Shown here: positions 785 to 31,548 of the stretch, piece by piece
Position numbering within the stretch: position 1 is the stretch's first letter
Layout of the letters: every line of letters begins with the position of its first letter
DNA from: Ectocarpus siliculosus
Taxonomy: Eukaryota; Sar; Phaeophyceae; Ectocarpales; Ectocarpaceae
Assembly (NCBI GenBank): GCA_000310025.1
Contig: FN649748.1
Coordinates: forward strand, 3,027,895-3,091,894
Reading direction: 5' to 3'
Length of the DNA: 64,000 nucleotides
Program-made: the position numbers and the translations under genes
The notes under the pieces: generated by a model
What the model saw: the letters and a program-made list of their open reading frames with translations, nothing else
The model's database searches: none
Told to the model about the DNA's origin: nothing

Positions 785-1103
785 CCGGTCGCCCCGGTGG
801 TCTAGTTGGTAGCCTCGTAACCTTCTAGAGGTCAGGTCAGGGGTTCGAATCCCGGCGTAGGCGAGCTTTTCTTGCAAAGTGAGATTTTCTCTCGCTTCCG
901 CTCCTGGCCAAGTGGATAGCGCTAGTTCGTGTGTACACAGAGGGAAGAGAGTGCTGAACTCTTCTCGCATTAAAAATTGAAGGCGAAGTACCGCAGGAGG
1001 GGAGGGTAGAGAGAGGCTCTTCTGTGTGACCACGGGTTGGAATAAACGGCACTAGTGCTGTGAGCCCTGATTTGAAGTGAAGAACAAAAAAAAAAAAAAA
1101 AAA
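785..1103 (+). mobile_element. tRNA-derived SINE, copy 1
   Basis: The head looks like a tRNA gene. An A-box-like TGGTCTAGTTGG lies at 798-809 and an exact B box GGTTCGAATCC at 842-852. About 230 bases of non-tRNA body follow, then a poly-A tail ending at 1103. A closely similar copy lies inverted at 12833-13150. The internal pol III promoter, unrelated body and A tail are the usual SINE layout. I could not find a convincing target-site duplication around this copy. Confidence 0.85.
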
Positions 1104-1858
1104 TTGACTTGCGGACCCCTCGGGGCCAGTTTATTTGAGTGTACCTTTTTAGGGTAAGTTAACATGTGACCACGGGAATCGACCGCGTCGAGTGTTGGAT
1201 CGGTACGGACATACGAAGGTACTGGGTAGAGAGAGATCGGAACGGTTTTTAATGTGAAGACAACAACAACAACAACAACAACAACAATGTAGTTCCTTCC
1301 CTGTTTCGGGTTGGCGAAAAATGGAGAATGGATTCAACAAGCTCATGTTGAAACATAACGCGCAGCAAGCAGTGTCAAATGCACAGCAACCGCGGCAAAA
1401 AAATGGGAGGAGCGCGGGGAAGCGATGACTTGCAGGCCAAATTGTTGTGCTGCGGTTCGGCGTGTATTTCGACGTAGAGTATTTCGACGTAGAGTGTGCG
1501 TGAAGAAAAAGTCTGCGAAAAGTGCGCGCGCCAAACAAACGGCACCGATCATGTGTGTACCGCAGAGGAGCAGACGGAGCGACATAGCTTGCTGCTGCTG
1601 ACAGAGACGCACCAACAAGCAGCACACGCACAGAGTTTATGCATGTACTACTACAGCAGTGCTGTGCATAGATTTGCATCGATAATAAAAGATACTTCAT
1701 CAAGAAAATTCGTCATCGCAGTCTGTTGACCTCAGCGTTCCATGTATATTGGTCTCGCGGTCTCTCTCCCGCATCCTATCGGGATTTTACCTGTCTATCC
1801 CTGCCTCCCGGCGTTTGCCTCTGCTGTCTGCTGTCTCGACCTTTTGCCAACTGTGAAG

Positions 1859-10856: not shown

Positions 10857-13800
10857 CCTAGGCCAAGCACCCCCGCCGGTCGACTGGCACCCCGTGCCGC
10901 CCCCCCCGATCGGAAGACGTGCCCAAGCAGAGTTCGCACGGCTTCCGACACAGAGAGTTGCTTCTCGCCGCTAAGGCTCTGGCCCTTGTGTCGAGCCCCG
11001 TGTGCTGTGGCACCGCTTCCTCCCCCCCGCCTGCAGCGTTGATATAGAAGGGGGGCGGGGAGTTGAAAAAAAAAAAAAAAAGTTCTACGATGAAATATTG
11101 CCACACTCGAGTCGAGATGAGTGACACCTCATATGAGAGATGTTCACTAATGGCACTGCGCGTTAATGGTTCGTGACTAGATATATTTCAAATTCTTGGC
11201 TCGTAGGCGATGTCTACAATGTTGGTCCCGCTGCACACGCATCGTCTGTTGATCCTTTGGGGTCGTAATCCCCCTACCATGACTCGTGCCGTCCATCCCC
11301 ATGCCGTCGCTGTTGTCCACTTCACTGTGGCAACCTCATGAAAGCATTTTGTTGTTGATCGGAGGAGAAACGGACAAGAAACAGGCACCGTCCGCATGAT
11401 GCCATGCGTCGCTCCCGAATCACAACGTGCTATGACACATGGATGCTCACTTGCACGGCTCTCTCCTACGGAAACCTCTTCCATGATGCTCACGGTCCGC
11501 GACGGTAACTCCTGTTTCCACGGTCCAACATCGCCATCCCGGAAACAAAACACCTTCGTCAGACGGCTAGCAAAACCGACACCAGCCACATGTACAGAAC
11601 AGAAAAGTACTGCACCTGGCGGCGACGTCATAGTCCCCGTACTCCGAGCTCCCCACAGTGAGGCACCACCCCCTGAAGCCGCTCGCGCCGGCCACGTAGA
11701 GCGATAGCGCCTCGTCGTTCACCACGTAGGCTGGGAGGTCGGCTTTGTGTCCAACCAAGAGCTTGCATGTCCACGGGGGATAGAACTTGCTCGGGAAAAC
11801 AATGCAAAAGGCGTTCGACGCACGGGGTGTAAGGGTGCGGGTTGGTTGTCTGGCTGTGCTGAAAACAACGCTCCGTCCCTCCACAATTCCACAAAAACAA
11901 TGCTGGATTTAGTGAGGGAGTATACACACTTCCGTGCGGTGGTGTTTGTGCACGACATGCAATACAATACTGGACACATATGGCCGAGCACTGGGATGGA
12001 GGTTTCATAGACATGTGCCAAAGACCTTGATGATTGACGCACGCAACTTGTAGATACAGCCAACCAACACATGCGCAGCGAGAGCGCATCGGGGGGCGAA
12101 GGGCGTAGCTGAACAGCTCCAACAACGATAGCCTCATCGACGCACAAAACCAGAAACCTCCTCGACCAGGAATCACTTGCCAAAATGTTCACACTTTCTA
12201 TGGTTCAAATATTGTGAAATAGGCCAACGTTCAAGTCGCCTCCGTCTCGCCACCCTTCCCCTTGGCATACGAAATATAGATCATGGTCGGACTTGAGCCA
12301 AGCAAAAAAAATAGCACAAAAAGGCGCAAAACATATGAAGCGCATATGCTGGCCACTGCAGGGTGAAGCACAAGCTAGGAAATGCCGTGCGTGAAGTGCG
12401 TGCGCGCGTGCAGCCAAAAGCAAAATACATGTGTGTTGTCTACTAGGGCAGCGAACAGCTTGAAACACAAAAAACAGGTAAACTTACTAGCTAGGAGAGT
12501 CCGTGATTGCGTTCTGCCTCACTTTAGAAAGCGCTTGGTCCCAGTCGTCGACCGCCTGTAGGCTCTCCCTGCTTGTCACGTCCATCACGTACAGCACCCC
12601 CTCTGCACCCTGCCCAATAAGTCCGTGATGACAGGGCTGCGCCGTAAGCTGCGACCCGGCTACGTCCCAGAGGTGGAGCTTCACCGGCCGTCCCTGGGCA
12701 CCCGCGGTTGAGAAATCCGCGCAACAGACGCAGAATGGGTTGTTGCATATTTGGAACGGAACAACGGGATTCTGTACGCGTGCCAGAACGCCAATCGACG
12801 CATCGGCAGTAGAATGAGTGCAAGAGAGGTATTTTTTGTTTTTGTTTTTTTTCACTTCAAATCAGCGCTCACAGCACTAGTGCCGTTTACTCCACCCCGT
12901 GGTCACACAGAAGAGCCCCTCTCCACCCTCCCCTCTTGCGGTACTTTGCCTTCGATTTTTAATTCGAGAAGAGTTCAGCACTCTCTTCCCTCTGTATACA
13001 CACGAACTAGCGCTATCCACTAGGCCAGAAGCGGAAGCGAGAGAAAAACTCACTTTGCAAGAAAAGGTCGCTTACGCCGGGATTCGAACCCCTGACCTGA
13101 CCTCTAGAAGGTTTCGAAGATACCAACTAGACCACCGGGGCGACCGGCTGAGAGAGGTATGTATTGCGATGAGAGCGACAGGTACTTCCTGCGGTCAGCC
13201 GGAGGGCGAAGGAAGCAGGGGAACAGCAAACCCTACCGGAAAAAACTTGTCGAGCACAGGGCCTGGCCCGTTCAGACTGCCAGTGCATCGAGGCCCGGAG
13301 ACAAACTCCTGGTTTGTACTCGGAATCTGAAACTACAAAGTGGCAAGAGTTTCATCAGGAAAACGCCACGCATGTGCGCCCTGCCGGGGATAACCATGAA
13401 ATTCAAATATCTCAACTCAACTTCCTGCTCAGCTGCTGGGGACGGGGCTCGGGGAGCTCCTTATCGAAAGTATCATACACCTTCCCAGAGAACCGGGACA
13501 GCGCGTCACTTGCGTGTTCTACATTGGGAGTATTTCGTACTGTAGTTAAAAAATGGCTCAACTCTACTGCATGGGTTTGATGCGGTATTGTGAAGGAATA
13601 TTGCCAAGTCTGTAATCGCGAGGAAGGCACCTTAGCCGTCTGTGTTGAGGAATTAAAAATTACTTCTTTGTGCTATTACAAGCTCGCCACAACCGTCGGC
13701 AACATCAAGCAGCCGAAGGTTTATTACTGTAAAATCTACCCCAGTTCGCCGAAGTATTTCGCACGGCCTCTCCCTGACTGGGGACAGGTGTATGCGAGCT

Positions 13801-17964: not shown

Positions 17965-17968
17965 TATG

Positions 17969-18236
17969 TGTAGTGGTATGCACGCGTGATGAGGTCTGGT
18001 TGACCCGTGAAGAAGAACTCACTTGTTGTTACTCTTGTAGAACAGCAGCAGCAGTAGCTGTTGCCTTGGGTATCGGTAGGAATGACACCAAGGGGCACAG
18101 GATCCTCTGCACAAGCAGGGGCTACTAGATCATGTCCCCTACTTTTTATCCTTCCGCGGAGAGTTACATCTCTCCGCGCCTTCTAGAAGGAACCAAGCTC
18201 TTCTATGTTCCGTCTACACATCTGAATCCTATAACA
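17969..18236 (-). repeat. 3' LTR
   Basis: 268 bp, starting TGTAGTGGTATGCACGCG and ending CCTATAACA on the plus strand. It is identical by eye to 31187-31454. An inverted CCGCGGAGAG...CTCTCCGCG hairpin lies inside. It is preceded by TATG (17965-17968). Confidence 0.95.
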
Positions 18237-18240
18237 CTAG

Positions 18241-18248
18241 CCCACCCT
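18241..18248 (-). promoter_or_regulatory. Polypurine-like tract
   Basis: AGGGTGGG on the minus strand lies a few bases upstream of the 3' LTR, the place where plus-strand DNA synthesis is primed in LTR elements. It is short and imperfect. Confidence 0.5.
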
Positions 18249-18795
18249 GGAGGTTCTCATACGCAGATACTGTAAAACCTCGAGTCTTGACAAGCAATTG
18301 TCGAGTCTCTAAATGAAAGTATCGAGGATGTGGAGCTCCAAAACAGCACAATTCACCCTCCCACACCTCTCACTCGATGAGTCGCAAGACCATCGTTTGA
18401 CTTCTAAAACGACAAAAAGACACAGACAGGAAGGAACTGACGGGGCTAAGAAAAGCCTACGACGACCGGAAGAAGATCGGAACCAAAGAAAGGAAGACAC
18501 AAAAAAAGGAAGAAAAACAGAAAAGAAAACAAAGGTCGTCAAAACGACAAAAAAGAAAGGATCACTGTAGGAACCACAACAAGACCGGTATCGTAAGAAA
18601 ACGACAAGATACGCCATTCACGCAGTCGCCACGGCAGTGTAGAAGGGGCATCAATGGGCGCGAAACACCTACAGGTCGTGACCAAACGCTAAAGGCACAA
18701 AATAAAGCGAGGAGAAAGCGAAAACCAACCAAGGCTAAAAAGCAACCCAAACAACGCTGAAAACAACAGAAAGCCAAGACAACTAGCACGTCGTC
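18249..18795 (-). other. 3' non-coding part of the retrotransposon
   Basis: This lies between the pol stop (TAA at 18798-18796) and the polypurine-like tract. It is A-rich on the plus strand with no domain in any frame. Confidence 0.6.
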
Positions 18796-21700
18796 TTAAT
18801 GGGGGCGCGCCACGTTATCAGGCAACGAATCAGCCCCGGGGTCACCACGCGACATGTCGACGTTGCGAAGGATCCCCTTAAAAAGGGCACTGCCGCTGTG
18901 AACTTGAAGGCACCAGGATCCGGAGACGGCGGTTTCAGCGGTGGAGTAGCGAACATCAGGAAGGGCGAGCTTGACAGGGCCAGGATCGTCCAAGAAGCGG
19001 ACGACGTAGAAGTCGGACGGTAGAGGCGGTCCAGTAATCTTGCCCAACCACCAGAATCCATCGCGAGCTTTGTACCAGAAGAAGGCGCCTGCAGGTAGCG
19101 GAGTATTGGCGAAGCGACGGTCCCAAGTTGAACGAGAGACGAGCGAATAACCCGAAGGCAAAGCTCGCTCCCCTTTAGCGCGCGCCATCTCGCGGGTGGC
19201 CGCACCAATACGCATCGCCCGATAGCGACGATTCGTTTGGCGATGTTGATCAGGCGAACCCGTCCAGTACCGGAGAATGTGGGGCTTGGAATGCTGGAGG
19301 TCCATCTCACGTTCCCAAGAAGGACGAAGAAGACCTTTCCAATGCGTTTGGTATAAAACAGCGATGGTGCCACCACGGCCACGAACAGACTGATGGCCAC
19401 TAATGCGGTCAACCTCGAGACGTTCGACCGGAGTCGACACGTCGTCTTCCGCAACATGGTAGGGAGGAGATTTATTCGCATAGGAGTTTAGCACATACGG
19501 TGTAAGGCCGGCAGGCAGGAACCGAGGCAAGTCTTCAGTGTCATGCGGATTAGCGCAAGGCTTGCAACGCGCAACTGACACACGGTTTTTCGAGTCCGGA
19601 CCCGGCAGATCCGATGGAAGGTCCAAATACAGTAATTTGGAAGCCAGAGGACAACCGTCGGGAGCGTCAGGACACGGACCCACGGCCAAGATCTTGAACG
19701 GACCAGTCCACAGGAAAGACAACTTAGCCTTGAGGACCTTGTCATCCGTGCCTGAACGAACACCTTGGCGAATGGTAGATTCGGTGTTGTACACCCAAAC
19801 CCATCCACCGACGGTGTATGAGGGGACCTTGCGCAAAGCATCCGATAGGGCGGAGTTACGCCGCTCAATCCTCGAAACGGACAGGTTGTGCTGTTCGCGA
19901 ACTAAATCGTAAGAACGACGTTGGCGATCAGCAGCCAGATCGCAATACTCAAGTTGATCGCGATGCAAGCTTTGGTGGCCTCGAGCATATGGATGCTCAA
20001 AAACCGTCATCGGCATGCGTGGCAGTCGGTTCATATGCACCTCGTTGGGCGCCAAACCAGTAGCGGCACTAAGCGAATTGTTGTAGGCAAACTCAACGTG
20101 CGGCAAATGAATGTCCCAATCATCTTGCCTCTCATTGACGACCATAGCCAACATCTGAGCCATAGTGTGATTGACGCGCTCCACACCCCCATTGCCGTTG
20201 GGATGGTAAGAGCTGGTAGCCACTTTGCGTATAGCCAGACGGGCGTATACAGCCTGCGACAGTTTGGAACAAAACTGAGAGCCATTATCAGACAAGAGAC
20301 TCAAAGGGCAACCCCATAAAGGGATATACCGATTGACAAGTACGTCAGCGGTGCCTTCGGCGGTGAATTCTGCAGCCGTAACCGCGTACATGTCAGCACG
20401 GCGGCTGAAACGGTCAGTGAAAAGCAGAATATATGTGTTTCCGCGCGGTGTCAACGGGAGGGGACCGAAATAATCGACGCTCACCGATACACCAGGGCCC
20501 GAAGGCAGCGGAAGGCACAAAGTAGGCCATCGAGGCGTTTGACGAGATGACTTGCGAGCTTGGCATCGCAAACAATGCCGTACCCACCACTTCGTGCAAA
20601 CACTCATGCCAACCCACCAATAAAAACGTTCCAGCATGCTAAGCGTGCGAGCGGCACCGAGGTGGCAGGATGCATCAGCGTGACAGGCTTGCATGATCCA
20701 CGGACGCATGAGCATGGGAACATAAATCCGAATGGGTTCGTCGTTGAGAAGGCGAGCAGCACGCCCGCCAGGACGTGTGGTCGTAGACGACGGGGGCGCT
20801 GTTTGCTTGCGAACAAGCAAGACCAAACCATCATCGTCAACATGTAACCGGCCTTTGTTAGACAGGTCACGAATCTCCGACAGAGGGGGTCGACGAGCGG
20901 ACGGAAGATGATCCAGGAAATCCGGAGGGAGAGCCGAAGGCCGACCCAGAAGGATGAAACGAATAGCTGCATCACAAACAGGTTCGTTACGTTGCTCGCG
21001 AGCCCAATCAGCATGCGAGAAACGTTCGACAGACGCCCGGAAGGCTAAATCTGCCGAGGAATGTAAAGCCGCCTCAATAGAAGAGGGGGCCGATTCCTGA
21101 GGCTCCGGCTGCAATCCACCCGAAGGCAGAGTAGCAGCGGAAACCGAAGACGAAGGCGTACAAGTGGTCGAAACCAAATGCGTCGAAGATTCCGAAGAAT
21201 CGGGAGCAGCAGAAGACTGCTGGGCAGGAGCAACCGAAGTCGCAGGATGCGTCGAAGACGCAAGATCCCTTCCACGAGCCAGAGGCGTATGGAGGTCTGG
21301 GATCGAAGTGTCAGCACCAGGAGCCGAAACCAACCTGGTCAAAACGGGGGGCGCCGTCGATGCTGATTGTGCAGGCCGGGAACGTCGAAACGATCTGGGC
21401 GAAGCGGAAATCCGAGTACGAGCAGGCGGGTCCTCAGAGAAACCATAATCCACGGGCGGGAGGGGCGTGCCTGCCACAACCGCCGTGCGACGGCGAGTTC
21501 GCGTGGAAATTAGTTGAGTAGGGTCGAGAGTCCGTCGTGATGCTGCAGTCGGCGAGACGGCCGGCGAAGACTCGGGCTCGAGAGCCAAAATGTCCTCCAC
21601 CGAAGAATGTAAGGAGCCAGACCAATCGAGGGTCCTGCCACACAGGCGTCGTAGCGAAGGAGACAACCCGCGGGAGTTGTTAGACGGCCAGGGTGCGATG

Positions 21701-24700
21701 TTCCAGACGCCAGGCGGAGACGAAAGGCCTGACGGCGAGAGACGTGGACCATGCCGACGGAAGTCGACAAAATCATCTGTAGAGGGGGCCAGCCCACCCA
21801 AGACCGAAGTCGGGGAAGTCGGGACGAGCCCACCCAAGCCAACACCCACGGCGCGATGGCCAGAAGGCGTAAGGCCACAAGAACGGATGAAGAATACGCT
21901 CTCCTCGTCGTCGTCCGGTGTCAAGCGACTGCGACCAGATCGGTCACATTCCGCCGCATCGATCGGAAGGCGAGAGAGGAAATCAGCGTTGCCATTTGCT
22001 GAACCCTTGCGGTACTCGAGAGTGTAATTGTAGGCGGTAAGAAATTCAAGCCAACGCTGAACGCGGGCATTGTTCTCCCCCACCTTGGCAAAATGCTCAA
22101 GAGATTTGTGGTCGGTAAAAATGCGAAATTTCGTGCCCCACAAATAACCGCGGAGTCGTTTGATGCACCATACGATGCTACCCGCCTCGAGGTCGAGGGG
22201 AGTCCAATGACGTTCGGAGTCCAAAGTAGCTCGGCTGATGAAAACGATGGGCCGGATGGAGCCATCCGGCTGTTCTTGTTCGAGAGTCCCGCCGAACCCA
22301 TCGCGACTAGCATCACAGTAGAGGCGAAAAGGTCGCGAGCCGTCCGTAACGGCATCCCAGTCTGGATAAACCAAGACAGGAGGATTGGCCAACTCAGACA
22401 ACAGGACGCGAACAGCTTGCTCCATGGCAGGGGTGAAGGCAAACGTCGCCTGCTTCTTGAGAAGAGTGGTCAGAGGTCGAATTCGCGTGGCCATGTTGGG
22501 AAGGAACTTGCGGTAGTAGCTGAGGCCGCCGAGAAGAGAGCGAAGTTGTTTAACATCCTTTGGCATGGGCATTTGGGTGAGGGCCGCAACCTTGGCCCCG
22601 TGAGGCCGAACACCGTCCGGGGAGATGGTGTGGCCGAGGAAATCCGCTTCGGTAGCGCCAATGGTGGCCTTCGGTGGGGTGAGTTTCAAGTTGTGTGTGC
22701 GCAAGCGTTCAAACAGAGCGCGCATGGTATCAACATGAGAAGCAGGGTTGTCGTCGAAAACGATCAAATCATCCAAGTACGATGCAACACCGTGGAGATT
22801 TTTGATGACTTCGTTGACCACCTTGCAAAACCACCCAGGGGCAGCAGAACTGCCCTGAGGCATCTTCAACCACTCAAAAAGCCCGGAAGACGTCACGAAT
22901 GCCGTCAAAGGGATTGTATCACGGTGAACCGTGATTTGGTGGAATGAAGACTTCATGTCGAAAAGGGAATAAATTCGCCCTTTCAACAACTTGTCCAAAG
23001 TATCATCAACTCGAGGAATCGGAAGCTGGCTCAAAGCACAGAGCTTGTTGAGCTTGCGATAGTTGACAGTGATACGAACACCACCAGATTTCTTCGGTAT
23101 GACTACCAAAGGACTCGAGTAGGGCGAGGTCGAATGTTGGATCAGACCAGCCGCAAGATATTGATCAAGGATCGCGTCAACTTGTTTCGCCACCGGGGGG
23201 TTAACGCGGTATGGACGAGACGTGACGGGTGCACTGCCCGGAGGAACTGTAAGCTTGAAAGGAAAAAGCGAACAAGATCCAAAGTCGGTGGGGGAACTCG
23301 AGAAGACATCATGATAGTCGCACAGGACGTTACCAAGCTGAGTGATGACATCCGGAGTCCAACCCGGACCATGGAGATCAAAAGAAATCTCCCGGAGATG
23401 GCAGGGGAGCTTATCCCATACGTGGGAAAAACTCTGACGTTGTTCAGACGTCAACCGCTCGAGAAGAGCAGGCGGAGGCGACGAAAGAGAAGCACTGGCA
23501 GAACCAGGGTCCTCTTTGCCGCTTTGCGACGGCGTGGGTCGCTCATGCAAATTATACACGAAGGGGTCATCAATGCGATGCGTGGCAGACGAATCAATGC
23601 CATCTGTCGAAACAGGACCCGGAACCCAGCTGCCCGAAGCAGTGGTGGGATCTTGAGCCGCAGGTTGAAGACCATCGCTCAAACTGTGGTGAGACACAGC
23701 ACTGAGAGGCACGCGAAGAAGGGGAGCCGAAGCTGTACCCAGAACGTCGCCTGGTTCGAGTGAAGAGATACCCGCGAGCGGGAGTCGTTGGCAACCATTT
23801 TGCACAAAGTGTTCCTCGGAAGAAAACATAGCACATTGTGGAAGCATATCCACGAGATAGTTACCCACGAGGGCTGGAGAGCCATCGCTGCGTACCAAAT
23901 TAACCGGAACAAGGCTATGTTCAGGGTGAAGTTGGACGGAATGTTTTCCAGCATAGCGAAGCTGGTAGTTACCATCTGTGGAAGACAAATCGTGAGCAAA
24001 TGCGGTGGCACCGCAACTGCTATGCTGAGCCAGGGTAAGCTCACCAAAAACACGGTCACCAGGGCGTTTGGCACGCAAAGTGCGGTAAGAGCGGTCGCTA
24101 AACCGCATCCAACTGTCTCTCCCAAGGAGCACGTCATGATGCATAACACCATCGGGAACAACGTACGCCCAAACAGCGAGAGAGGAAGTAGGAAGGCGCT
24201 TGCGAAGAAACTGCACGCTCAAACGGACAATAGTCGAAGTTTGAAGTGGAGCAGATTCGCCGAAACCTCCCCAACAGCGAGGTTGGGTTTGTTTCTCAGA
24301 CAACGACGAAGCGGCCGAAGCGGCTTTCATGGATTCCCACGCAGATGCACTAATAAAAGACTGCGGGGAACCCGTGTCTAAAAGAGCAACACATCCAAAC
24401 TGAACAGAAGCTGAACCACTGTGAGTGAGGATTTGGGTGGTGAAAGAGTCATCATCGATGGTAACAACACCATCAACCAAATCAGGACCTTGCTCAGGAA
24501 GCAAAGAAGAGGAAGAGGATGGCTGAGGGCACCCGGAAGACACGGCCCAAACAGCGGTGTCATGATCCGATGGAACATTCGCAGCGTATTGTGAAAACGA
24601 CGCGAATCGTTCAGTCGACGGAGGGGTTGAGGCCATCCGAAGACGCTGGTGTGTAGAAGGGCTAACTTCATAAACCGCGTTATGTTGAGACGACGTCGAA

Positions 24701-26538
24701 ACGTGGTCGTTGGGAGGCAGCAAACGAGAGCTGCGCTCGGGCGGCGGGGCATTGCACCGCAAAAGACTGCGTACTCGTTGAAGGGCATTGCCCAACAAAT
24801 TGAGGCCACGCCATCGAGAGGTGGATAGAGCGTCGGGATCATCGGCTTGAAGGCCAATGCCCCAAATACGGTCGTAAGGACTAGCTTCGGCAAGGATTTT
24901 GTCGCCAGATCCGAGAAGATGCTCGCGCAACTCGGAGTTTTGACTAAATTTTGCGTAAGAGCCAGTGAGCACAATATTTTCGCGCTCCTGTTCCCAAAGT
25001 GATGGGTCGAAACCACGGACACCTCGGCCAAACTTCTTGTGTAAGGCAGGATCGGACACGCGCATGATGTTTTGTAAAGCGCAATGGTCTTCGAAAAGAC
25101 GAGCTTTTTCCGCAACGAAAAACTGCTCAGCACACGAGTATACCACTCCATCGACCACAAAAGTCGACGGGGTCCATTGGGAAAAGGGAGAGGGGGGCTT
25201 CCAAAAGAAGACCATATCAGGAGTACAATACTCGTTAGATGGGTCGAAGACAGCGGGAACTGCAGGAGTCGAAACACCTGGAGTGCGGTCAGCCGAAGCT
25301 GAGGTTGCAGCCGAAGCTGATGTAGTCGAAGCGGAGGCAGCCGAAACGCCCGCATTGTAATTTACGGCGTGAACATCCATGGGGACGGTCTCGGACATGC
25401 CAGAGACCGGCGAAGAATCGGCCGGAGCCGGATTGGTCGCAATAATTGGGCCAGCGACATGACGTTGGGTGCGCCCCAATTCTAAACCTGAAGAAACGCC
25501 TCGTAAGGTGTCATTCAACAGGTTGCTTTCGCTAGGAACGGCCGCCAAGGCCGGGTCGGTTAAAGAACCACACCGGGCGTGGTGCTCCTGGCCATTCCTC
25601 CGTGACAAGGTACGCGAGACCGCCAGCTGTTCGGAGGTCACTCCGGGAGGGTCCTCCCGAAGCGGTGGTGTCAACACTGTCGACGTCGGTCGCGGCGGCC
25701 TGGTATCGGGCGCCGTGGGGCGAGCGTGCGTCGGAAGGGATGGAGCGTCCGAAGACGATCCATGGTCGAAATATCTCGTGGCGGAATCTGATGATGTTCG
25801 GCGGTCAGGACCAAGAGAACAACGCGATTCGAAGCCAGGCGAATTTGACCCTGTAACTTGCCGGTCGGAACCAGTCAAGTTAGCTACCGGTGCAACAATC
25901 GAGGGCGAACCCTCAACGGAAGCGAGCACAGACGAGTTGAGCGTATCCGAAGATTCACCCGAGGTAACCAATTCAGGCGATTCCTCTTCAATCGTCCAAA
26001 GCGCATGGCTACGGCCGGTCTGATCTGCAGACGACGGGGGGAGCGAACGAGCGGTGCCCGACAAACGAGCGGTACTCGATGGCCCCGAAGGTCCTACGGT
26101 TCTGTTCCCGCACCTCAAGACAGCACTCGCGCCAGACTGGTTAATTTCTGACGGAGAGCCAGCCCGAAGAGGCAGAGACGCAGAGGTGGCAGATGATAAG
26201 TGCGATGTAGAAGGTGGGACGAGAGCATTTGTCTGGATACCGACCTGATCGACACTGGGGAAAACAACGGGTACCGAAGTATGGTTGTTATTGTACGGCA
26301 CCGAAGTACCAGAAGGGATAACATTCACCGAAGTGCGGTTATCGTTGCGTAGGACCGAAGTGCTAGAGGCAACAGTGTGTGACGGCGCGACAGATACCGA
26401 AGTATTGTCGTTGTTGCATAAAACCGAAGTATTAGAGGCAACAGAGCGTGACACACGAGCGTCTTGTGATGAACGAGATGAGGTCCCCGAAGATGCTGAA
26501 GGCGGTCCGGGGGAAGTAGGCGAACTACCACCGATGAG
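18796..26538 (-). CDS. pol: Pol polyprotein: NADAR-PR-RT-RNaseH-IN-chromo-Tudor
   Basis: The frame is open from the codon after the gag TGA (26541-26539) to TAA at 18796. Numbering from GTG 26454 gives 2,552 residues. Order by approximate residue: Ser/Thr-rich leader 1-405; NADAR 408-564; aspartic protease LLDTGSPQSF with the Asp near 693; reverse transcriptase with VNYRKLNKLC and YLDDLIVF near 1226; RNase H with YCDASRDGFGG near 1379 and TDHKSLEHF; a roughly 300-residue Ser/Pro-rich linker; integrase with an HHCC zinc site (HADASCH...CLRC, about 1924-1963) and a D,D-35-E core (SVDYFGPL, LLSDNGSQF, NGGVERVN); chromodomain-like VERLEVDRISGH...THWKGL near 2340-2395; and a C-terminal RDGFWWLGKITG segment resembling Tudor/Agenet folds. 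No ATG is needed if expressed by readthrough from gag. The enzymatic motifs all look intact, so the element may be active. Confidence 0.95.
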   Translation of the reverse strand, partial: LIGGSSPTSPGPPSASSGTSSRSSQDARVSRSVASNTSVLCNNDNTSVSVAPSHTVASSTSVLRNDNRTSVNVIPSGTSVPYNNNHTSVPVVFPSVDQVGIQTNALVPPSTSHLSSATSASLPLRAGSPSEINQSGASAVLRCGNRTVGPSGPSSTARLSGTARSLPPSSADQTGRSHALWTIEEESPELVTSGESSDTLNSSVLASVEGSPSIVAPVANLTGSDRQVTGSNSPGFESRCSLGPDRRTSSDSATRYFDHGSSSDAPSLPTHARPTAPDTRPPRPTSTVLTPPLREDPPGVTSEQLAVSRTLSRRNGQEHHARCGSLTDPALAAVPSESNLLNDTLRGVSSGLELGRTQRHVAGPIIATNPAPADSSPVSGMSETVPMDVHAVNYNAGVSAASASTTSASAATSASADRTPGVSTPAVPAVFDPSNEYCTPDMVFFWKPPSPFSQWTPSTFVVDGVVYSCAEQFFVAEKARLFEDHCALQNIMRVSDPALHKKFGRGVRGFDPSLWEQERENIVLTGSYAKFSQNSELREHLLGSGDKILAEASPYDRIWGIGLQADDPDALSTSRWRGLNLLGNALQRVRSLLRCNAPPPERSSRLLPPNDHVSTSSQHNAVYEVSPSTHQRLRMASTPPSTERFASFSQYAANVPSDHDTAVWAVSSGCPQPSSSSSLLPEQGPDLVDGVVTIDDDSFTTQILTHSGSASVQFGCVALLDTGSPQSFISASAWESMKAASAASSLSEKQTQPRCWGGFGESAPLQTSTIVRLSVQFLRKRLPTSSLAVWAYVVPDGVMHHDVLLGRDSWMRFSDRSYRTLRAKRPGDRVFGELTLAQHSSCGATAFAHDLSSTDGNYQLRYAGKHSVQLHPEHSLVPVNLVRSDGSPALVGNYLVDMLPQCAMFSSEEHFVQNGCQRLPLAGISSLEPGDVLGTASAPLLRVPLSAVSHHSLSDGLQPAAQDPTTASGSWVPGPVSTDGIDSSATHRIDDPFVYNLHERPTPSQSGKEDPGSASASLSSPPPALLERLTSEQRQSFSHVWDKLPCHLREISFDLHGPGWTPDVITQLGNVLCDYHDVFSSSPTDFGSCSLFPFKLTVPPGSAPVTSRPYRVNPPVAKQVDAILDQYLAAGLIQHSTSPYSSPLVVIPKKSGGVRITVNYRKLNKLCALSQLPIPRVDDTLDKLLKGRIYSLFDMKSSFHQITVHRDTIPLTAFVTSSGLFEWLKMPQGSSAAPGWFCKVVNEVIKNLHGVASYLDDLIVFDDNPASHVDTMRALFERLRTHNLKLTPPKATIGATEADFLGHTISPDGVRPHGAKVAALTQMPMPKDVKQLRSLLGGLSYYRKFLPNMATRIRPLTTLLKKQATFAFTPAMEQAVRVLLSELANPPVLVYPDWDAVTDGSRPFRLYCDASRDGFGGTLEQEQPDGSIRPIVFISRATLDSERHWTPLDLEAGSIVWCIKRLRGYLWGTKFRIFTDHKSLEHFAKVGENNARVQRWLEFLTAYNYTLEYRKGSANGNADFLSRLPIDAAECDRSGRSRLTPDDDEESVFFIRSCGLTPSGHRAVGVGLGGLVPTSPTSVLGGLAPSTDDFVDFRRHGPRLSPSGLSSPPGVWNIAPWPSNNSRGLSPSLRRLCGRTLDWSGSLHSSVEDILALEPESSPAVSPTAASRRTLDPTQLISTRTRRRTAVVAGTPLPPVDYGFSEDPPARTRISASPRSFRRSRPAQSASTAPPVLTRLVSAPGADTSIPDLHTPLARGRDLASSTHPATSVAPAQQSSAAPDSSESSTHLVSTTCTPSSSVSAATLPSGGLQPEPQESAPSSIEAALHSSADLAFRASVERFSHADWAREQRNEPVCDAAIRFILLGRPSALPPDFLDHLPSARRPPLSEIRDLSNKGRLHVDDDGLVLLVRKQTAPPSSTTTRPGGRAARLLNDEPIRIYVPMLMRPWIMQACHADASCHLGAARTLSMLERFYWWVGMSVCTKWWVRHCLRCQARKSSRQTPRWPTLCLPLPSGPGVSVSVDYFGPLPLTPRGNTYILLFTDRFSRRADMYAVTAAEFTAEGTADVLVNRYIPLWGCPLSLLSDNGSQFCSKLSQAVYARLAIRKVATSSYHPNGNGGVERVNHTMAQMLAMVVNERQDDWDIHLPHVEFAYNNSLSAATGLAPNEVHMNRLPRMPMTVFEHPYARGHQSLHRDQLEYCDLAADRQRRSYDLVREQHNLSVSRIERRNSALSDALRKVPSYTVGGWVWVYNTESTIRQGVRSGTDDKVLKAKLSFLWTGPFKILAVGPCPDAPDGCPLASKLLYLDLPSDLPGPDSKNRVSVARCKPCANPHDTEDLPRFLPAGLTPYVLNSYANKSPPYHVAEDDVSTPVERLEVDRISGHQSVRGRGGTIAVLYQTHWKGLLRPSWEREMDLQHSKPHILRYWTGSPDQHRQTNRRYRAMRIGAATREMARAKGERALPSGYSLVSRSTWDRRFANTPLPAGAFFWYKARDGFWWLGKITGPPLPSDFYVVRFLDDPGPVKLALPDVRYSTAETAVSGSWCLQVHSGSALFKGILRNVDMSRGDPGADSLPDNVARPH
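24761..25233 (-). other. NADAR (YbiA-like) domain inside pol
   Basis: About 157 residues between the leader and the protease match the whole NADAR pattern. It starts with MVFFWKPPSPFSQW, then DGVVYSCAEQFFVAEKARLF, KKFGRGVRGFDPSLWEQER, AKFSQNSELREHLLGSGD, LAEASPYDRIWGIGL and GLNLLGNALQRVR. The conserved Glu-Gln of the first helix, the Trp of the FDxxxW block and the SPxDxxWGIG signature are all present, so catalysis is plausible. Known members cleave N-glycosidic bonds. Bacterial YbiA/RibX-type proteins act on riboflavin intermediates, and NADAR partners of DarT remove ADP-ribose from guanine in DNA. The role in a retroelement is unknown. Confidence 0.92.
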
Positions 26539-26541
26539 TCA
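26539..26541 (-). promoter_or_regulatory. Single TGA between gag and pol, same frame
   Basis: Minus-strand codons read ...CGC AGC GGA TGA CTC ATC GGT... The frame is open on both sides: gag from 28860 and pol to 18796. UGA followed by C is a leaky context in several viruses. This suggests stop-codon readthrough as the way to make Gag-Pol, instead of the more common -1 shift. Confidence 0.7.
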
Positions 26542-28860
26542 TCCGCTGCGAGAACGACCACCATTTTGGAAGTTGCCAGGTTGACGGGCATTGTGATTGG
26601 TCGAAACCATGATGCCAGACGAAGGACCGGTGTGTGCATGTGTTTGTGGTTGATAGAGGGACAGAGCACCAGTGTGGTTGGTGTTGATCGAAGGGTGTTG
26701 CTGAGCGTGAGAGTTACCCGCAGAATTTCCTGGGGCATACCCACCGTTGTGCGAGTGTGTCTGATGAGTGTGAGGGGAACTACCACCGTCGGAACGGCGA
26801 TTCCCAGCGTGGTTTCGACGCTGAGAGGACGAAGAGGAAGAGCGCTGGTGGCGTCTACCCTGATTGTTTTGGCGGTTGTCCGCACTTTTTCGTCGAAAAG
26901 ACCGCATACGGCCTTGCCAACGTCTAAAAGCAGCAGAATCGTCATTGAGGAGACCCAACTCGGGGTTCAACAACCCACTAGAATTCGTGAACGGTGCAAC
27001 GCATTGCTTCATGGAATGGTCTTCACCCGAGCAGTTCAGACAGCGATTCCTGTTTTCGCGGAAGGCTTGCGAGCGAGCCTCTTGTGTCAACAAAGGAGTC
27101 CACAAAAAAGGATCCTCCGTGTTACGAAAACTAGAAGTGAGAGCGTATACGTCAGACCAATCGGCTTGCGAAGCAGGCCAAGAATTATGGTTGCGTGTGA
27201 AAGGGTCAGCGTCGTGCGATTGTACCGGCAAAACTACAGGGTTCTGAGCGGAACCTGGTGCCCACTGGCCCGAAGGCGCGGGGGCGCGGTGTTGGGACCG
27301 CCGAGGCTGCGAGGAGCCACGCGTCGAAGACAACGAAAAATAAGATGAACCGCCGATAGCCGGGGTTTGATTTGTCGCTAGAGGCGCGAACGCCTCCCAC
27401 AAATCCGCAATCGACGCAAAGGGAGTGACGGCCGTGGCCAGAGCACCCGGGTACAAAATCGGAGACAAACTCGGAAATTGCTTGCAGACCGAATGCCGCA
27501 CAATTTCTAGAACCATGGACACGCTAGGGGCCAAAGTACGCTCAGAGCCAGTCACAGACGAAACCAACAAACGAAAAGCACGAAGGTAATCCGCGAAAGA
27601 AGTACCATCTGCTACTCCAAATTGTTGAAGCCTCAAAAACGACTCTTGACGGTCGCCGACATCAAATTGCTCCGCAAGATGACGCAACAGCAACTGAAAA
27701 GCTTCTGGTCCGGTGGCGCCGCCGTCCAAGCTTCTCTTCACCTGCTGAAAGTAATCAGCGATGGAAAGGACAAGATCGGCAGTAGAGGGCTTGTCAGGGG
27801 TGATCGCACCCGAAAGTTTCTTTTCGAGAGGCCGTTCCCATCCAGGCACGTAATCCGTACTGTCCAACCCTTCGCTTTGGTCATCACACAGCAACAATAT
27901 GTCGGACAAGGCCGTTCGTGTTGTGCGGATGAGCTGTTGGTAGCCGTCCCCAGGCAACAAAGTTGAAGGGAAGGGCATGGTAGCGACATTTCCAACTTTT
28001 TTCAAGTTCAGAGTGATGTACGCCCGTTGGACAGTAACTACGTGAGCCTTGCGAACTGCCGAAGCAGCCGCATCTACGGTGGCTTGACGAGCATGTGCAA
28101 TGTTGGAAGAAAGTGGCAAGACACTATCATCCGAAACGACAGGGGGTGCAGCAGCTGCAACCGAAGGAGCAGCAGGCGGAACACGATCCCAAGACGGTAC
28201 AACATGATGAACATCTTGTACGGGCACAAAAGTCGAAGGGGGGGTGGGGTTTGAGAACCCGGGGTTGTGTGCGATTCCTGAGCCTACAGCATAATCAGCG
28301 GTAGAAAAAACAGGAGGTGCCACAGTTTCCGAAGAAACGGGGGGGGGCGAAGCCTGTGGCATGTTCGAAAACGCAGCACGAGTTTCCGAAGAAACAGGGG
28401 GGGCCGAAGCCTGTGGTATGTTCGAAAACGCAACACGAGTTTCCGAAGAAAACGGGGGGGGCCGAAGCCGGAAGGTTCGAAAACGCAACACGAGTTTCCG
28501 AAGAAACGGGGGGGGCCGAAGCCGGAGGGACAAAATCGTCACGCAAAAGGAAACGAGCATCCGAAGTCGCGTCCATGAGGGACGGAACAACTTGCCTTTG
28601 ACGACCTGGCTTGCGGGGCAAGCTGGTGTCCGAGCCTGACCCGGTCTTGCTCTTGTTCTTGGAGCCACGAGCGCCATCCCCGCCACGCTTGGCCACCTTT
28701 CTCTCCCGGCTACCACCCACCGAAGAGGACGAAGGCGCCGGGGGTGGACGCGATGCTCCAGCCGAGCTCCAGCCAGACTCCTCGCCCGAGCTACCAGGAC
28801 CAGTCTCCCGACTCGGTTGCGCCTGCTTGACACGACCCGGCGCCGGCTGCTGGAACACAT
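26539..28860 (-). CDS. gag: Gag (capsid/nucleocapsid) frame
   Basis: This frame is open from 28860 to the TGA at 26541-26539. By repeat alignment the natural reading enters it only near 28450, coming from another frame upstream. The middle part has a helical capsid-like region (e.g. QLLLRHLAEQFDVGD, SFADYLRAFRLLVSS). A zinc knuckle CLNCSGEDHSMKQC, CX2CX4HX4C, lies at about 27042-27001, as expected for RNA-binding nucleocapsid. The C-terminal end is Asn, Gln, Ser, Arg and Gly rich (RRNHAGNRRSDGG), suited to nucleic-acid binding. It is followed in frame by pol. The stretch before about 28450 is probably a shadow frame. Confidence 0.85.
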   Translation of the reverse strand: MCSSSRRRVVSSRRNRVGRLVLVARARSLAGARLEHRVHPRRLRPLRWVVAGRERWPSVAGMALVAPRTRARPGQARTPACPASQVVKGKLFRPSWTRLRMLVSFCVTILSLRLRPPPFLRKLVLRFRTFRLRPPPFSSETRVAFSNIPQASAPPVSSETRAAFSNMPQASPPPVSSETVAPPVFSTADYAVGSGIAHNPGFSNPTPPSTFVPVQDVHHVVPSWDRVPPAAPSVAAAAPPVVSDDSVLPLSSNIAHARQATVDAAASAVRKAHVVTVQRAYITLNLKKVGNVATMPFPSTLLPGDGYQQLIRTTRTALSDILLLCDDQSEGLDSTDYVPGWERPLEKKLSGAITPDKPSTADLVLSIADYFQQVKRSLDGGATGPEAFQLLLRHLAEQFDVGDRQESFLRLQQFGVADGTSFADYLRAFRLLVSSVTGSERTLAPSVSMVLEIVRHSVCKQFPSLSPILYPGALATAVTPFASIADLWEAFAPLATNQTPAIGGSSYFSLSSTRGSSQPRRSQHRAPAPSGQWAPGSAQNPVVLPVQSHDADPFTRNHNSWPASQADWSDVYALTSSFRNTEDPFLWTPLLTQEARSQAFRENRNRCLNCSGEDHSMKQCVAPFTNSSGLLNPELGLLNDDSAAFRRWQGRMRSFRRKSADNRQNNQGRRHQRSSSSSSQRRNHAGNRRSDGGSSPHTHQTHSHNGGYAPGNSAGNSHAQQHPSINTNHTGALSLYQPQTHAHTGPSSGIMVSTNHNARQPGNFQNGGRSRSG
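28324..28545 (-). repeat. Coding tandem repeat, four units of about 57 bp
   Basis: Units encode SETRVAFSN(L/M)PQASAPPV-type peptides. Units 1 and 2 are 57 bp. The third has an extra A in GAAGAAAAC and is shortened to 55 bp, which moves the reading frame by one. Each contains a 7-9 base G run. Confidence 0.8.
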
Positions 28861-29815
28861 AGGAAGCCTCTAAAGGCGGATCGCTGCAGCCAGGGTACAC
28901 CACCGGAGCAGTGGCACGGGCGTTGGCTGTCCGCATCCCAGCGAGGAAACGGCCGGCCAGATCCCGAAGATCCAGACGGGAGGTGTTGGCCACATCCACC
29001 GCCTCCTGAATGGTGACGACCGCCGGCAACGCGATGGCCACTTCCGTGGCCAAGTCCGGAAGTTACAGCCGCGGCCGAAGCCGTGGCCGAAGCCGGGGGT
29101 ACTGCCGAAGCAGGGGTGGCGGCCGAAGCCGAGGGCGCCGCCGAAGCAGCGGTGGTGGCCGAAGCCGAGGGTGCCGCCGAAGCAGCGGTGGTGGCCGAAG
29201 CCGAGGGTGCTGCCGAAGCAGCGGTGGTGGCCGAAGCCGAGGGTGCTGCCGAAGCAGCGGTGGTGGCCGAAGCCGAGGGTGCCGCCGAAGCAGCGGTGGT
29301 GGCCGAAGCCGAGGGGGGTAGGACCATCTAGACAGGCTCGGCCGGCCGGCCGGTGATTGCAGACCTTGTTCCGCCGCCGGTGGCGGAATCCCGAAGCTCG
29401 GGAGTCGAAAGCCGAACTGAAGATGTCGGCTCGTGCTTGGGGGCCGGAGTCGTGGTCACCATGGTGCTAAGAAGGCCGTGGAGATGGCGATTGTAGCGCT
29501 CTGCGATTTCGAGACGATGAAAAGCCTCAGCCGTAGCAGCACGTTCATGCGAAGAAGAAAGCATGGGGGGGGGTGGGGGCACGGCGTAAGGGTAAGGGGA
29601 AAGGGTAGGGGCAGAGGGTACTGCTGAAACAACCGAGGTCGCAGCTAGGGGCGCCGAAGCAGGAGCTAGCATGGCAGAGTCGGTCGAAACGGTAGGATCG
29701 AAACCCGCCGTGTGAACACGTGAATCTGTGGAAAATGCGAGCAGAGGCGTATCTACTGGCATAGAAACAGCGGTGTTTACAGCAGCCGAAGCCGCTGACA
29801 CAGGGTTCTGTGTGG
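28450..29815 (-). pseudogene. N-terminal gag region split between two frames
   Basis: Ala/Ser/Pro-rich peptide continues first in one frame (29815 to about 29060) and then in a second (about 29060 to 28450). Protein-like segments are EAFHRLEIAERYNRHLHGLL and LDLRDLAGRFLAGMRTANAR. A TAG at 29330-29328 interrupts the first part and is followed at once by an ATG (29327). Frame moves occur near 29815, 29060 and 28450, each in a repeat or a homopolymer. Either this part of gag is decaying, or the assembly has indels, or translation really shifts. The single original frame is inference from composition. Confidence 0.55.
29098..29320 (-). repeat. 36 bp coding minisatellite, about six units
   Basis: The unit GCCGAAGCCGAGGGTGCTGC plus 16 further bases repeats with few changes. 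On the minus strand it encodes the 12-residue unit PSASATTAASAA. It sits in the broken N-terminal part of gag, and copy number is likely variable. Confidence 0.85.
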
Positions 29816-31051
29816 AAGTAGTGTGGCGGGGAAAGGGGCAGACGACACTGTACGCAGGGTCGAAACGGTGCGAAGAGGCGGAGCTGCAGGAATATTAGCA
29901 TCGCCAGCAGTCGAAACTGTGAGCAGGGGCGGAGCTAATGGAATGGGCAAAAGTACACGTGCAGCAGTCGAAACCGCAGAGACAGGTGCACCAGTAGTGG
30001 GAACATGATAGGCATGTGGGGGGGCAGACGTCACAGCAGTACGCAGCGTCGAAACGGTACGCAAAGGTGGGGCGGCTAAGGCAGCAGCACCGCGAACAGT
30101 CGAAACTGTGGGTAGCGGCGGAGCTAAAGGGATGGGGGCAAACACACCTACAGCAGTCGAGACCGCAGGGACAGGCACATTAGCAGTCGAAACTGCACGT
30201 GTAGTCGAAACTACTGAAGCTAAAGCATCGGAGGCAAACGAAATGGCCTGTGTGGGCGAAACCACGGGATCAGATGCAGTAGAATCAACCGAAAGAGCTG
30301 GGGTAGACGAGGCTACTGTGGGGAGTGTACCAGAGGCAATCGAAATCGCCCGTGTAGTCGAAACTACTGGAACAGTGGTTGGTGATGCGGCGGAATCTGC
30401 AAGCGGTGATGTCACTGAAGCAGATGCACGACGGTCACGAAGCCGTTGAGCGCGAGCCGCTGCTTGTACACGATCGCTACGAGAAGAAAAAGGGGGAATC
30501 GCCGGCACTGTATAGTCGAACTGCAACGTGCTGCGAGAAGCCGAGCGACTGGACAAGCGTGGTACTACAGGGCCAGCAACATGGTCGAAACCGATGTCGG
30601 TCCCAAGAGCAGGGTGCTCAACGGTGGATGGGGCGAGAGGAAAATTCGAGTCGACATGTGGTTCACGCGGGAATTCAGAAAGCTCATCACCAGCAGCCGT
30701 CGAGACGGACTGCTGTTGTACACCCAAAGACACAGAGGCAGAAACCGAAGTTCCAGGTGTGGGTGCTGGCGGTTTGAGGACAGCACCCACGGGGTTAGCG
30801 TCGACCGAAGCCGGCGAGGCGAACCTCTCCCGAATGCGTTGAGCGCGAAGCTCTGACAAACGAGCGGCATCGGCAACAGGGTCAGCGGCACGAGCACCGT
30901 CCGAAGACAGCAGCAGTTGTGTGGTCTGACGACCAGCTGCTGGGGACCCGAAGGTCGCTACACGGGGCGATGACACTGGCGAACGCGAACGTTCCGAATG
31001 CTCAGGACTCGCCGAAGCAGAGTCTGATGAGCCGACGCTAGGTTGAGACAT
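29777..31051 (-). CDS. Low-complexity 5' ORF of the retrotransposon
   Basis: The start is set at ATG 31051-31049 (MSQPSVGSSDSASAS), the first ATG after the primer-binding site. An in-frame open stretch reaches into the LTR but is unlikely to be translated. About 424 residues, rich in Ser, Thr, Ala, Val and Pro with a recurring VSTxR/VSTA pattern. One Arg/Ala-rich motif recurs (ARLSELRAQRIRERF, AARAQRLRDRRAS). No known domain. It may be a matrix-like Gag N-terminus, separated from the rest by a frame change near 29815. Confidence 0.65.
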   Translation of the reverse strand: MSQPSVGSSDSASASPEHSERSRSPVSSPRVATFGSPAAGRQTTQLLLSSDGARAADPVADAARLSELRAQRIRERFASPASVDANPVGAVLKPPAPTPGTSVSASVSLGVQQQSVSTAAGDELSEFPREPHVDSNFPLAPSTVEHPALGTDIGFDHVAGPVVPRLSSRSASRSTLQFDYTVPAIPPFSSRSDRVQAAARAQRLRDRRASASVTSPLADSAASPTTVPVVSTTRAISIASGTLPTVASSTPALSVDSTASDPVVSPTQAISFASDALASVVSTTRAVSTANVPVPAVSTAVGVFAPIPLAPPLPTVSTVRGAAALAAPPLRTVSTLRTAVTSAPPHAYHVPTTGAPVSAVSTAARVLLPIPLAPPLLTVSTAGDANIPAAPPLRTVSTLRTVSSAPFPATLLPHRTLCQRLRLL

Positions 31052-31170
31052 ACCGATAAGCGAGGCAAAGCTAAGCTGTGGTTGGGGCGAAAGCGCAAAA
31101 AACTGCAGCAGCAGTCTAAAGCACCAAACCGCGCCAAGACACAACCAAGCCAGACAACACCGTACGAATA

Positions 31171-31184
31171 AGCCGACAACGCCA
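31171..31184 (-). promoter_or_regulatory. Putative primer-binding site
   Basis: Two bases downstream of the 5' LTR the minus strand reads TGGCGTTGTCGGCT. TGG pairs with the CCA end of a tRNA. I cannot assign the tRNA by eye; it does not look like the common initiator-Met site. Confidence 0.6.
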
Positions 31185-31186
31185 AG

Positions 31187-31454
31187 TGTAGTGGTATGCA
31201 CGCGTGATGAGGTCTGGTTGACCCGTGAAGAAGAACTCACTTGTTGTTACTCTTGTAGAACAGCAGCAGCAGTAGCTGTTGCCTTGGGTATCGGTAGGAA
31301 TGACACCAAGGGGCACAGGATCCTCTGCACAAGCAGGGGCTACTAGATCATGTCCCCTACTTTTTATCCTTCCGCGGAGAGTTACATCTCTCCGCGCCTT
31401 CTAGAAGGAACCAAGCTCTTCTATGTTCCGTCTACACATCTGAATCCTATAACA
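31187..31454 (-). repeat. 5' LTR
   Basis: 268 bp, indistinguishable from 17969-18236 and followed by TATG (31455-31458). It would carry the promoter and the RNA start for the minus-strand element. Confidence 0.95.
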
Positions 31455-31548
31455 TATGGTCGTGCCCAACGTATAGTAGTCGTCGATGACACCGCTGAGC
31501 TCTGGGTGACCCGGTGGGTAACCTACACTATTTGACAAATAGAATAAG

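What the first reader, a model, noticed from the sequence alone, without database searches (positions are those of the whole stretch)
24761..25233. NADAR domain built into a Ty3/Gypsy polyprotein
A complete NADAR domain with its diagnostic blocks (CAEQ, FDPSLWEQER, SPYDRIWGIG) lies in the same open frame as protease, RT, RNase H and integrase, just upstream of the protease. Intact pol and identical LTRs suggest it moved recently with the domain. NADAR enzymes act on ADP-ribose-type N-glycosides, and some strip ADP-ribose from DNA. One hypothesis is that the element carries it to undo ADP-ribosylation of its cDNA or proteins by the host. I do not know of a described retroelement with this arrangement, but I could not search.
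Basis: partly seen in the sequence, partly recalled or inferred. Interest (0 to 1): 0.92.

Follow-up and report, generated by a model that had tools for sequence, protein, structure and literature searches.

The report
Retrotransposon carrying an ADP-ribose eraser
A recently inserted jumping gene in a brown alga carries, inside its replication polyprotein, an enzyme domain that is predicted to strip ADP-ribose tags, and selection among its copies has kept that domain about as strictly as the element's own protease, so it likely helps the element copy itself, perhaps past a host defence that has not been identified.

Summary
A 13,486-bp Ty3/Gypsy element (17969-31454, minus strand) has identical 268-bp LTRs, a TATG target-site duplication, a Gag-like frame, and a 2580-codon Pol frame with NADAR (24757-25209), protease, RT, RNase H and integrase. 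NADAR scores 155 bits (cut-off 35). It is no one-off: the same genome gives at least 150 NADAR matches, and all nine Pol regions that I fetched have RT downstream. Catalytic residues are kept. Among 30 copies, shared variants give pN/pS 0.12 in NADAR, 0.10 in protease and 0.74 in the upstream linker, so the domain is under purifying selection.

This is a new member from a brown-alga genome. Added here: the selection test; a shared origin of this clade's NADARs near myxobacterial and planctomycete ones; and NADARs in a distant kind of Gypsy (once with a Macro domain) and a Copia-type protein, probably separate captures. Likely function, untested: removing ADP-ribose from the element's own nucleic acids or proteins.

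The parts
31187..31454 (-). 5' LTR, 268 bp (TG...CA), identical to the 3' LTR
17969..18236 (-). 3' LTR, 268 bp
31455..31458 (.). target-site duplication TATG (+ strand), right copy
17965..17968 (.). target-site duplication TATG (+ strand), left copy
26539..28869 (-). Gag-like open frame (776 codons; no Pfam hit); CCHC zinc knuckle CLNCSGEDHSMKQC at 27001-27042
26539..26541 (-). TGA stop between the Gag and Pol frames, which are in phase; TGA followed by C; likely read through
18796..26538 (-). Pol open frame, 2580 codons
24757..25209 (-). NADAR domain (Pol 444-594); predicted catalytic E471, K478, E551
24115..24390 (-). retropepsin region (LLDTGS at 24367-24384); weak profile hit
22624..23100 (-). 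reverse transcriptase (YLDD at 22768-22779)
22030..22437 (-). RNase H
20545..20721 (-). integrase zinc-binding domain (H2C2)
20200..20496 (-). integrase core (rve)
19264..19416 (-). possible C-terminal chromodomain, below the Pfam cut-off (E 0.0053, 17.1 bits against 25.1)

Best explanation
The element is a 13.5-kb Ty3/Gypsy retrotransposon whose Pol frame holds a NADAR domain just ahead of the protease, which is predicted to hydrolyse ADP-ribose-guanine linkages and likely protects the element's own nucleic acids inside its particle during reverse transcription. Shown: the open frame, the domain, its catalytic residues, its presence across several subfamilies, broadly matching NADAR and RT trees, and purifying selection about as strong as on the protease. 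Inferred: the TGA between the in-phase Gag and Pol frames is read through at a low rate, so NADAR would be made only as part of Gag-Pol and packaged with RT. Inferred: once packaged, it would strip ADP-ribose that host ADP-ribosyltransferases place on guanines of cDNA or RNA, or on particle proteins. The enzyme that would make this mark in the alga is unknown.
Against: I know of no assay of a retroelement NADAR. No DarT in the genome (0 of 1 genome; the control rang in 1 of 14); other guanine-modifying families were not searched, and the PARP matches are short fragments. NADARs may have other substrates: E. coli YbiA cleaves riboflavin intermediates (PMC11543638 passage). The adenine-ribose contact D86 of 8BAU is not conserved (P in 30 of 47 rows). 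Among close copies NADAR has a higher dN than the protease in 9 of 10 pairs, and more premature stops were seen in NADAR (7 cells) than in protease (1). One copy (L040), with LTRs 99% like the window's and protease, RT and RNase H 98-99% identical, has a NADAR scrambled in the middle. Readthrough is not shown.
Confidence: 0.45

Rival explanations
1. NADAR would process or cleanse the RNA intermediate (the suggestion of the Ectocarpus authors), for example by removing NAD- or ADP-ribose-type groups from genomic RNA, with no role in defence.
For: Proposed in PMC12477816 (section 5). NADAR also sits in a protein with mRNA-capping domains (P0143) and in an RNA-virus protein (P0152, medionivirus).
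Against: The published activities that I saw concern guanosine-ADP-ribose, tested on DNA (passages); I know of no RNA-processing step of Gypsy elements that needs it (recalled).
Confidence: 0.18
2. NADAR serves as an ADP-ribose-binding module that would steer the pre-integration complex to chromatin carrying ADP-ribose, alongside the possible C-terminal chromodomain.
For: Ectocarpus Gypsy lineages carry chromatin-reader domains (PMC12477816); a weak chromodomain match here; most pocket residues conserved.
Against: The catalytic E, K and E are kept nearly throughout, whereas a pure reader could lose them. The domain lies before the protease, not by the integrase.
Confidence: 0.14
3. NADAR would act as a general N-glycosidase for damaged or reactive metabolites (YbiA-like damage control) that are harmful to reverse transcription.
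For: E. coli YbiA cleaves riboflavin-pathway intermediates (PMC11543638 passage).
Against: No evident reason why such a housekeeping activity should be carried by the element; the nearest sampled bacterial relatives are myxobacterial and planctomycete, and a myxobacterial YbiA is a guanine-ADP-ribose hydrolase.
Confidence: 0.1
4. The domain is a passenger captured once and hitch-hiking without function.
For: One young copy (L040) has a scrambled NADAR; 7 premature-stop cells in NADAR among 30 copies.
Against: Shared variants give pN/pS 0.12 in NADAR against 0.74 in the linker; present across diverged subfamilies with catalytic residues kept.
Confidence: 0.03

Closest known systems
NADAR-bearing Ty3/Gypsy lineage of Ectocarpus sp. 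7 (Gypsy-12_Ec32; PMC12477816)
   Same: Gypsy Pol with a YbiA-family NADAR near its N-terminus, in a brown alga; C-terminal chromodomain in the published example (only a weak match here).
   Different: The published consensus was not at hand, so I compared only with P0014, a protein named as Ectocarpus sp. CCAP 1310/34: 57.8% identical to the window in NADAR and 62.5% in RT-RNase H. Another subfamily of the window's genome (L044) is 93.9% identical to P0014 over 621 residues. A word search of the paper's main text found no synonymous/nonsynonymous analysis and one unrelated use of 'purifying'.
Phytophthora nicotianae NADAR (PDB 8BAU; PMC11543638)
   Same: Fold and the catalytic residues E43, K50 and E125; an active guanine-ADP-ribose hydrolase (passages).
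   Different: 31% identical in the Foldseek alignment; called stand-alone in PMC11125620 (passage), not part of a retroelement in the passages that I saw.
Myxobacterial YbiA of the YarT-YbiA toxin-antitoxin pair (Chondromyces crocatus; PMC11125620)
   Same: YbiA-subfamily NADAR; Myxococcota and Planctomycetota NADARs are the nearest sampled relatives of the retroelement clade.
   Different: The published protein itself was not in the tree; it is a stand-alone antitoxin (section 6).
Tx1 LINEs of Crassostrea gigas with NADAR in ORF1 (reported in PMC12477816)
   Same: A retroelement with NADAR.
   Different: A non-LTR element; not examined here.

Membership tests
Ty3/Gypsy LTR retrotransposon | Order protease - RT - RNase H - integrase in Pol | tested here: met
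   (protease by its LLDTGS motif and a weak profile hit)
Ty3/Gypsy LTR retrotransposon | Paired LTRs (TG...CA) with a short target-site duplication | tested here: met
   268-bp identical LTRs and TATG on both sides
Ty3/Gypsy LTR retrotransposon | tRNA primer-binding site after the 5' LTR | tested here: inconclusive
   The sequence after the 5' LTR was read but not matched to an algal tRNA; no tRNA gene found in the window
NADAR, YbiA subfamily | Profile PF08719 above its cut-off | tested here: met
   155.3 bits against 35.1
NADAR, YbiA subfamily | Catalytic glutamate in the last strand (E125 of 8BAU) plus E43 and K50 | tested here: met
   Window E551, E471, K478; kept in 46, 47 and 45 of 47 rows
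NADAR, YbiA subfamily | Hydrolysis of ADP-ribose-guanine | not testable with these tools
   Needs an enzyme assay
Ectocarpus NADAR-Gypsy lineage | NADAR at the N-terminal part of Pol, upstream of protease | tested here: met
Ectocarpus NADAR-Gypsy lineage | C-terminal chromodomain | tested here: inconclusive
   PF00385 E 0.0053, 17.1 bits against 25.1
Ectocarpus NADAR-Gypsy lineage | RT groups with the Ectocarpus element | tested here: inconclusive
   RT of P0014 (Ectocarpus) falls in the same 22-row set as the window, apart from P0017 and P0142 (98/99); the tree has no other named Gypsy lineages and not the published consensus

The most novel reading that the evidence does not exclude
Retroelements have repeatedly armed themselves with ADP-ribose hydrolases: NADAR in this Gypsy lineage, in a distant kind of Gypsy (once together with a Macro domain), in a Copia-type element and perhaps in a tyrosine-recombinase element. 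That would mean that eukaryotes restrict retroelements by ADP-ribosylating their nucleic acids or particles, an anti-transposon defence not yet found, and that NADAR in Gag-Pol is its counter-defence.
Probability: 0.3. Interest if true: 0.87.

Novelty: new member of a known kind. Interest (0 to 1): 0.58.

Why it matters
NADAR-bearing Gypsy elements were reported in 2025 in Ectocarpus with their role left open. The selection signal here says that the domain matters for the element's spread, and its kept catalytic residues point to chemistry rather than binding. If the mark that it removes is found, it would reveal ADP-ribosylation as a way in which eukaryotic cells fight their own transposons, comparable to what DarT-type enzymes do against phages in bacteria.

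Tried and rejected
Rejected: chance or a one-off capture; a dead passenger domain; no precedent. Not taken as evidence of NADAR loss: proteins P0011, P0013, P0015 and P0016 lack NADAR but align to Pol from 682, 694, 803 and 773 on, downstream of it, so their gene models may be cut; P0012 has other sequence upstream. Led nowhere: DarT in the genome (none); Macro in the genome (one fragment); Pfam on seven of the window's 23 frames of 200 codons or more, six outside the element and one in its 5' part (no family); a short LTR-bounded copy on C92 is a deletion derivative that keeps two internal pieces and lacks NADAR, not informative; viral contigs gave one relative; open frames beside the bacterial NADARs L055-L058 were printed but no partner gene was tested. 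A paper search for macrodomain, retrotransposon, ADP-ribosylation and Gypsy listed one unrelated paper. De Souza and Aravind 2012, which I recall as the paper that defined NADAR, is not held, so whether it mentions retroelements is unknown to me. A search for 18S rRNA in the genome did not complete.

Weak points: the NADAR tree has prokaryotic, one viral and polyprotein NADARs but no stand-alone eukaryotic ones, so the bacterial origin is provisional. For all 19 Gypsy rows the tree needs two changes and 0% of 200 bootstrap trees need one, but well-supported branches force only one, and P0017 and P0142 are long branches, so separate captures are probable, not proven. dS between subfamilies is saturated. 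The 30 copies include four at 85-90% identity, its variants are counted as independent, and pieces under 84% identity were dropped there, which leaves 27 copies for the linker.
Full report
What is there. On the minus strand, 17969-31454 is an LTR retrotransposon of 13,486 bp: two identical 268-bp LTRs with TATG on both outer sides, a Gag-like frame with a CCHC knuckle, a single TGA, and in phase with it a 2580-codon Pol frame. Pfam finds NADAR (Pol 444-594, 155.3 bits, cut-off 35.1), RVT_1, two RNase H models, integrase zinc-binding and integrase core, all over cut-off. The protease shows LLDTGS with only a weak profile hit, and a C-terminal chromodomain is suggested below cut-off. NADAR is the only non-standard domain over cut-off and lies just before the protease.

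The host. The window's genome (189.5 Mb, 492 contigs) has a mitochondrial COX1 whose best named matches are brown algae: Macrocystis pyrifera 96% over 95% of its length, Cutleria multifida 92% over all of it; a partial Ectocarpus sp. 12 entry is 87%. The species is not resolved. A protein named as Ectocarpus sp. CCAP 1310/34 (P0014) is 93.9% identical over 621 residues to one subfamily of this genome, L044.

It is a family, not a one-off. PF08719 gives 150 scored matches in the genome out of 230 candidates, each over cut-off, a lower bound. The window's NADAR protein gives 150 scored of 259 candidates; 25 rows, the window's own included, cover at least 151 of 158 residues at 93% identity or more, and the others go down to 53%. 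I examined 48 sequence records: the window plus L001-L047, of which L009 is the window's own copy and L041, L045 and L047 repeat copies already held, so 44 distinct copies. NADAR is in 48 of 48 and the protease region in 47 of 48 (not in L026); RT and RNase H are in 9 of 9 regions that I chose across subfamilies and fetched to reach them, one RT with a stop. Most of the nine were chosen for long open frames. A copy with one of the lower-scoring full-length NADAR matches, L097, is also a Gypsy element. Forty full-length LTR matches at 99-100% (the window's two included; 40 of 157 candidates scored) show that the family moved recently.

Selection. Among 30 copies (the window and L010-L038), I compared single-base codon variants shared by two or more copies, which were likely passed on by moving elements, with private ones, which mostly arose after insertion. 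Shared N:S is 9:24 in NADAR (pN/pS 0.12), 4:14 in protease (0.10), 11:17 in the short linker after NADAR (0.23) and 49:27 in the long upstream linker (0.74). Private N:S is 67:36 (0.59), 45:21 (0.74), 43:16 (0.96) and 108:62 (0.71) (copies per region 30, 29, 30 and 27). Premature stops, left out of these counts, were 7, 1, 1 and 6 cells. Fisher: NADAR shared versus private p 0.00022; NADAR versus linker, shared, p 0.00040; NADAR versus protease, shared, p 0.75; linker shared versus private p 1; protease shared versus private p 0.00084. Pooled pairwise pN/pS is 0.20 for NADAR (25 copies, 300 pairs) and 0.28 for protease (22 copies, 231 pairs). In single pairs, dN is lower in NADAR than in protease in 8 of 8 comparisons between distant subfamilies (for example window versus L042 0.276 and 0.441), where dS is mostly saturated, but higher in 9 of 10 comparisons of closer copies (for example window versus L039 0.172 and 0.119; one copy is in two of these pairs); RT is usually more constrained than either. 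On the test with shared variants, NADAR is thus kept about as strictly as the protease. Against this, copy L040 has protease, RT and RNase H 98-99% identical to the window's, and LTRs 99% like it, yet a scrambled stretch inside NADAR.

Expression. The Gag and Pol frames are in phase across one TGA followed by C. The same TGA-CTC stands at this place in eight other copies (L011, L013, L014, L015, L016, L018, L024, L029); other copies meet another stop or the edge of the locus first. In a distant subfamily (L097) a TGA followed by C also ends the frame with the CCHC knuckle, and a TGA followed by C is the first stop upstream of NADAR in L003, L004 and L007, 336-374 codons away. Readthrough is thus likely, not shown. 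It would make NADAR a Gag-Pol product that travels with RT in the particle.

Origin and spread. In a 66-row tree the 17 NADARs from Gypsy proteins of this type group together (92/92) and lie next to three Myxococcota and one Planctomycetota NADARs (88/87); the supports are moderate. The RT tree (24 rows) shows broadly the same groups, with P0010 placed differently; congruence was not tested formally. That fits one capture and joint descent. Two other Gypsy proteins, P0017 and P0142, have RTs only 30-35% identical to the window's, and their NADARs fall elsewhere, so they are probably separate captures; one origin for all is not ruled out. In P0017 a Macro domain and NADAR both follow the integrase; P0019 is a Copia-type protein (RVT_2) with NADAR near the N-terminus; P0018 has NADAR with OTU, DUF4326 and a sub-threshold tyrosine-recombinase match. 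Their organisms are unnamed.

How it likely works. NADARs of an oomycete and of a myxobacterium remove ADP-ribose from guanine (PMC11543638 passages; PMC11125620 section 6), and related bacterial pairs are toxin-antitoxin systems. A packaged NADAR would meet single-stranded cDNA during reverse transcription. I therefore favour removal of ADP-ribose from the element's own nucleic acids (confidence 0.45), with RNA-intermediate processing, chromatin reading and metabolite damage control as rivals. The genome holds four PARP catalytic fragments and no DarT match; the writer of the mark is unknown.

What is known. [quoted passage not shown] it suggests RNA processing. Of the searches for NADAR or YbiA with retrotransposon or retroelement (104, 1,404, 1 and 3 papers held, 20, 20, 1 and 3 listed), this was the only relevant paper that I saw in the listings. 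The window's element is thus a new member of a known kind. I saw no selection test of the domain and no report of Macro plus NADAR in a Gypsy element in these listings or passages, but most subscription papers are not held.

Noticed in passing
P0017 (protein from an unnamed ENA assembly): Gypsy Pol with a Macro domain (1226-1343) and a NADAR (1422-1570) after the integrase: two unrelated ADP-ribose-handling folds in one retroelement.
   Followed up: partly
P0019 (unnamed ENA assembly): Ty1/Copia-type polyprotein (RVT_2) with NADAR near its N-terminus and a Tudor-type domain after the integrase.
   Followed up: partly
P0018 (unnamed ENA assembly): 3614-residue protein with OTU, NADAR, DUF4326 and a sub-threshold tyrosine-recombinase match; perhaps a DIRS/Ngaro-like element.
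   Followed up: no
P0143 (jgi, ena): NADAR in a protein with mRNA-capping-enzyme domains, perhaps of a large DNA virus.
   Followed up: no
L040 (G000:C89:158400-162000): A young copy whose NADAR is scrambled in the middle while protease, RT and RNase H are 98-99% identical to the window's.
   Followed up: partly
window 784-1112 and 12820-13148: Inverted repeat of 329 nt, 92% complementary, 11.7 kb apart, enclosing a 792-codon open frame (5089-7467, minus) without Pfam hits; perhaps a DNA transposon.
   Followed up: partly
window 29023-29351: Array of 18-nt repeats in the 5' part of the element.
   Followed up: no
G000:C92:94862-99374: Short LTR-bounded copy that keeps only two internal pieces; a deletion derivative without NADAR.
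   Followed up: partly
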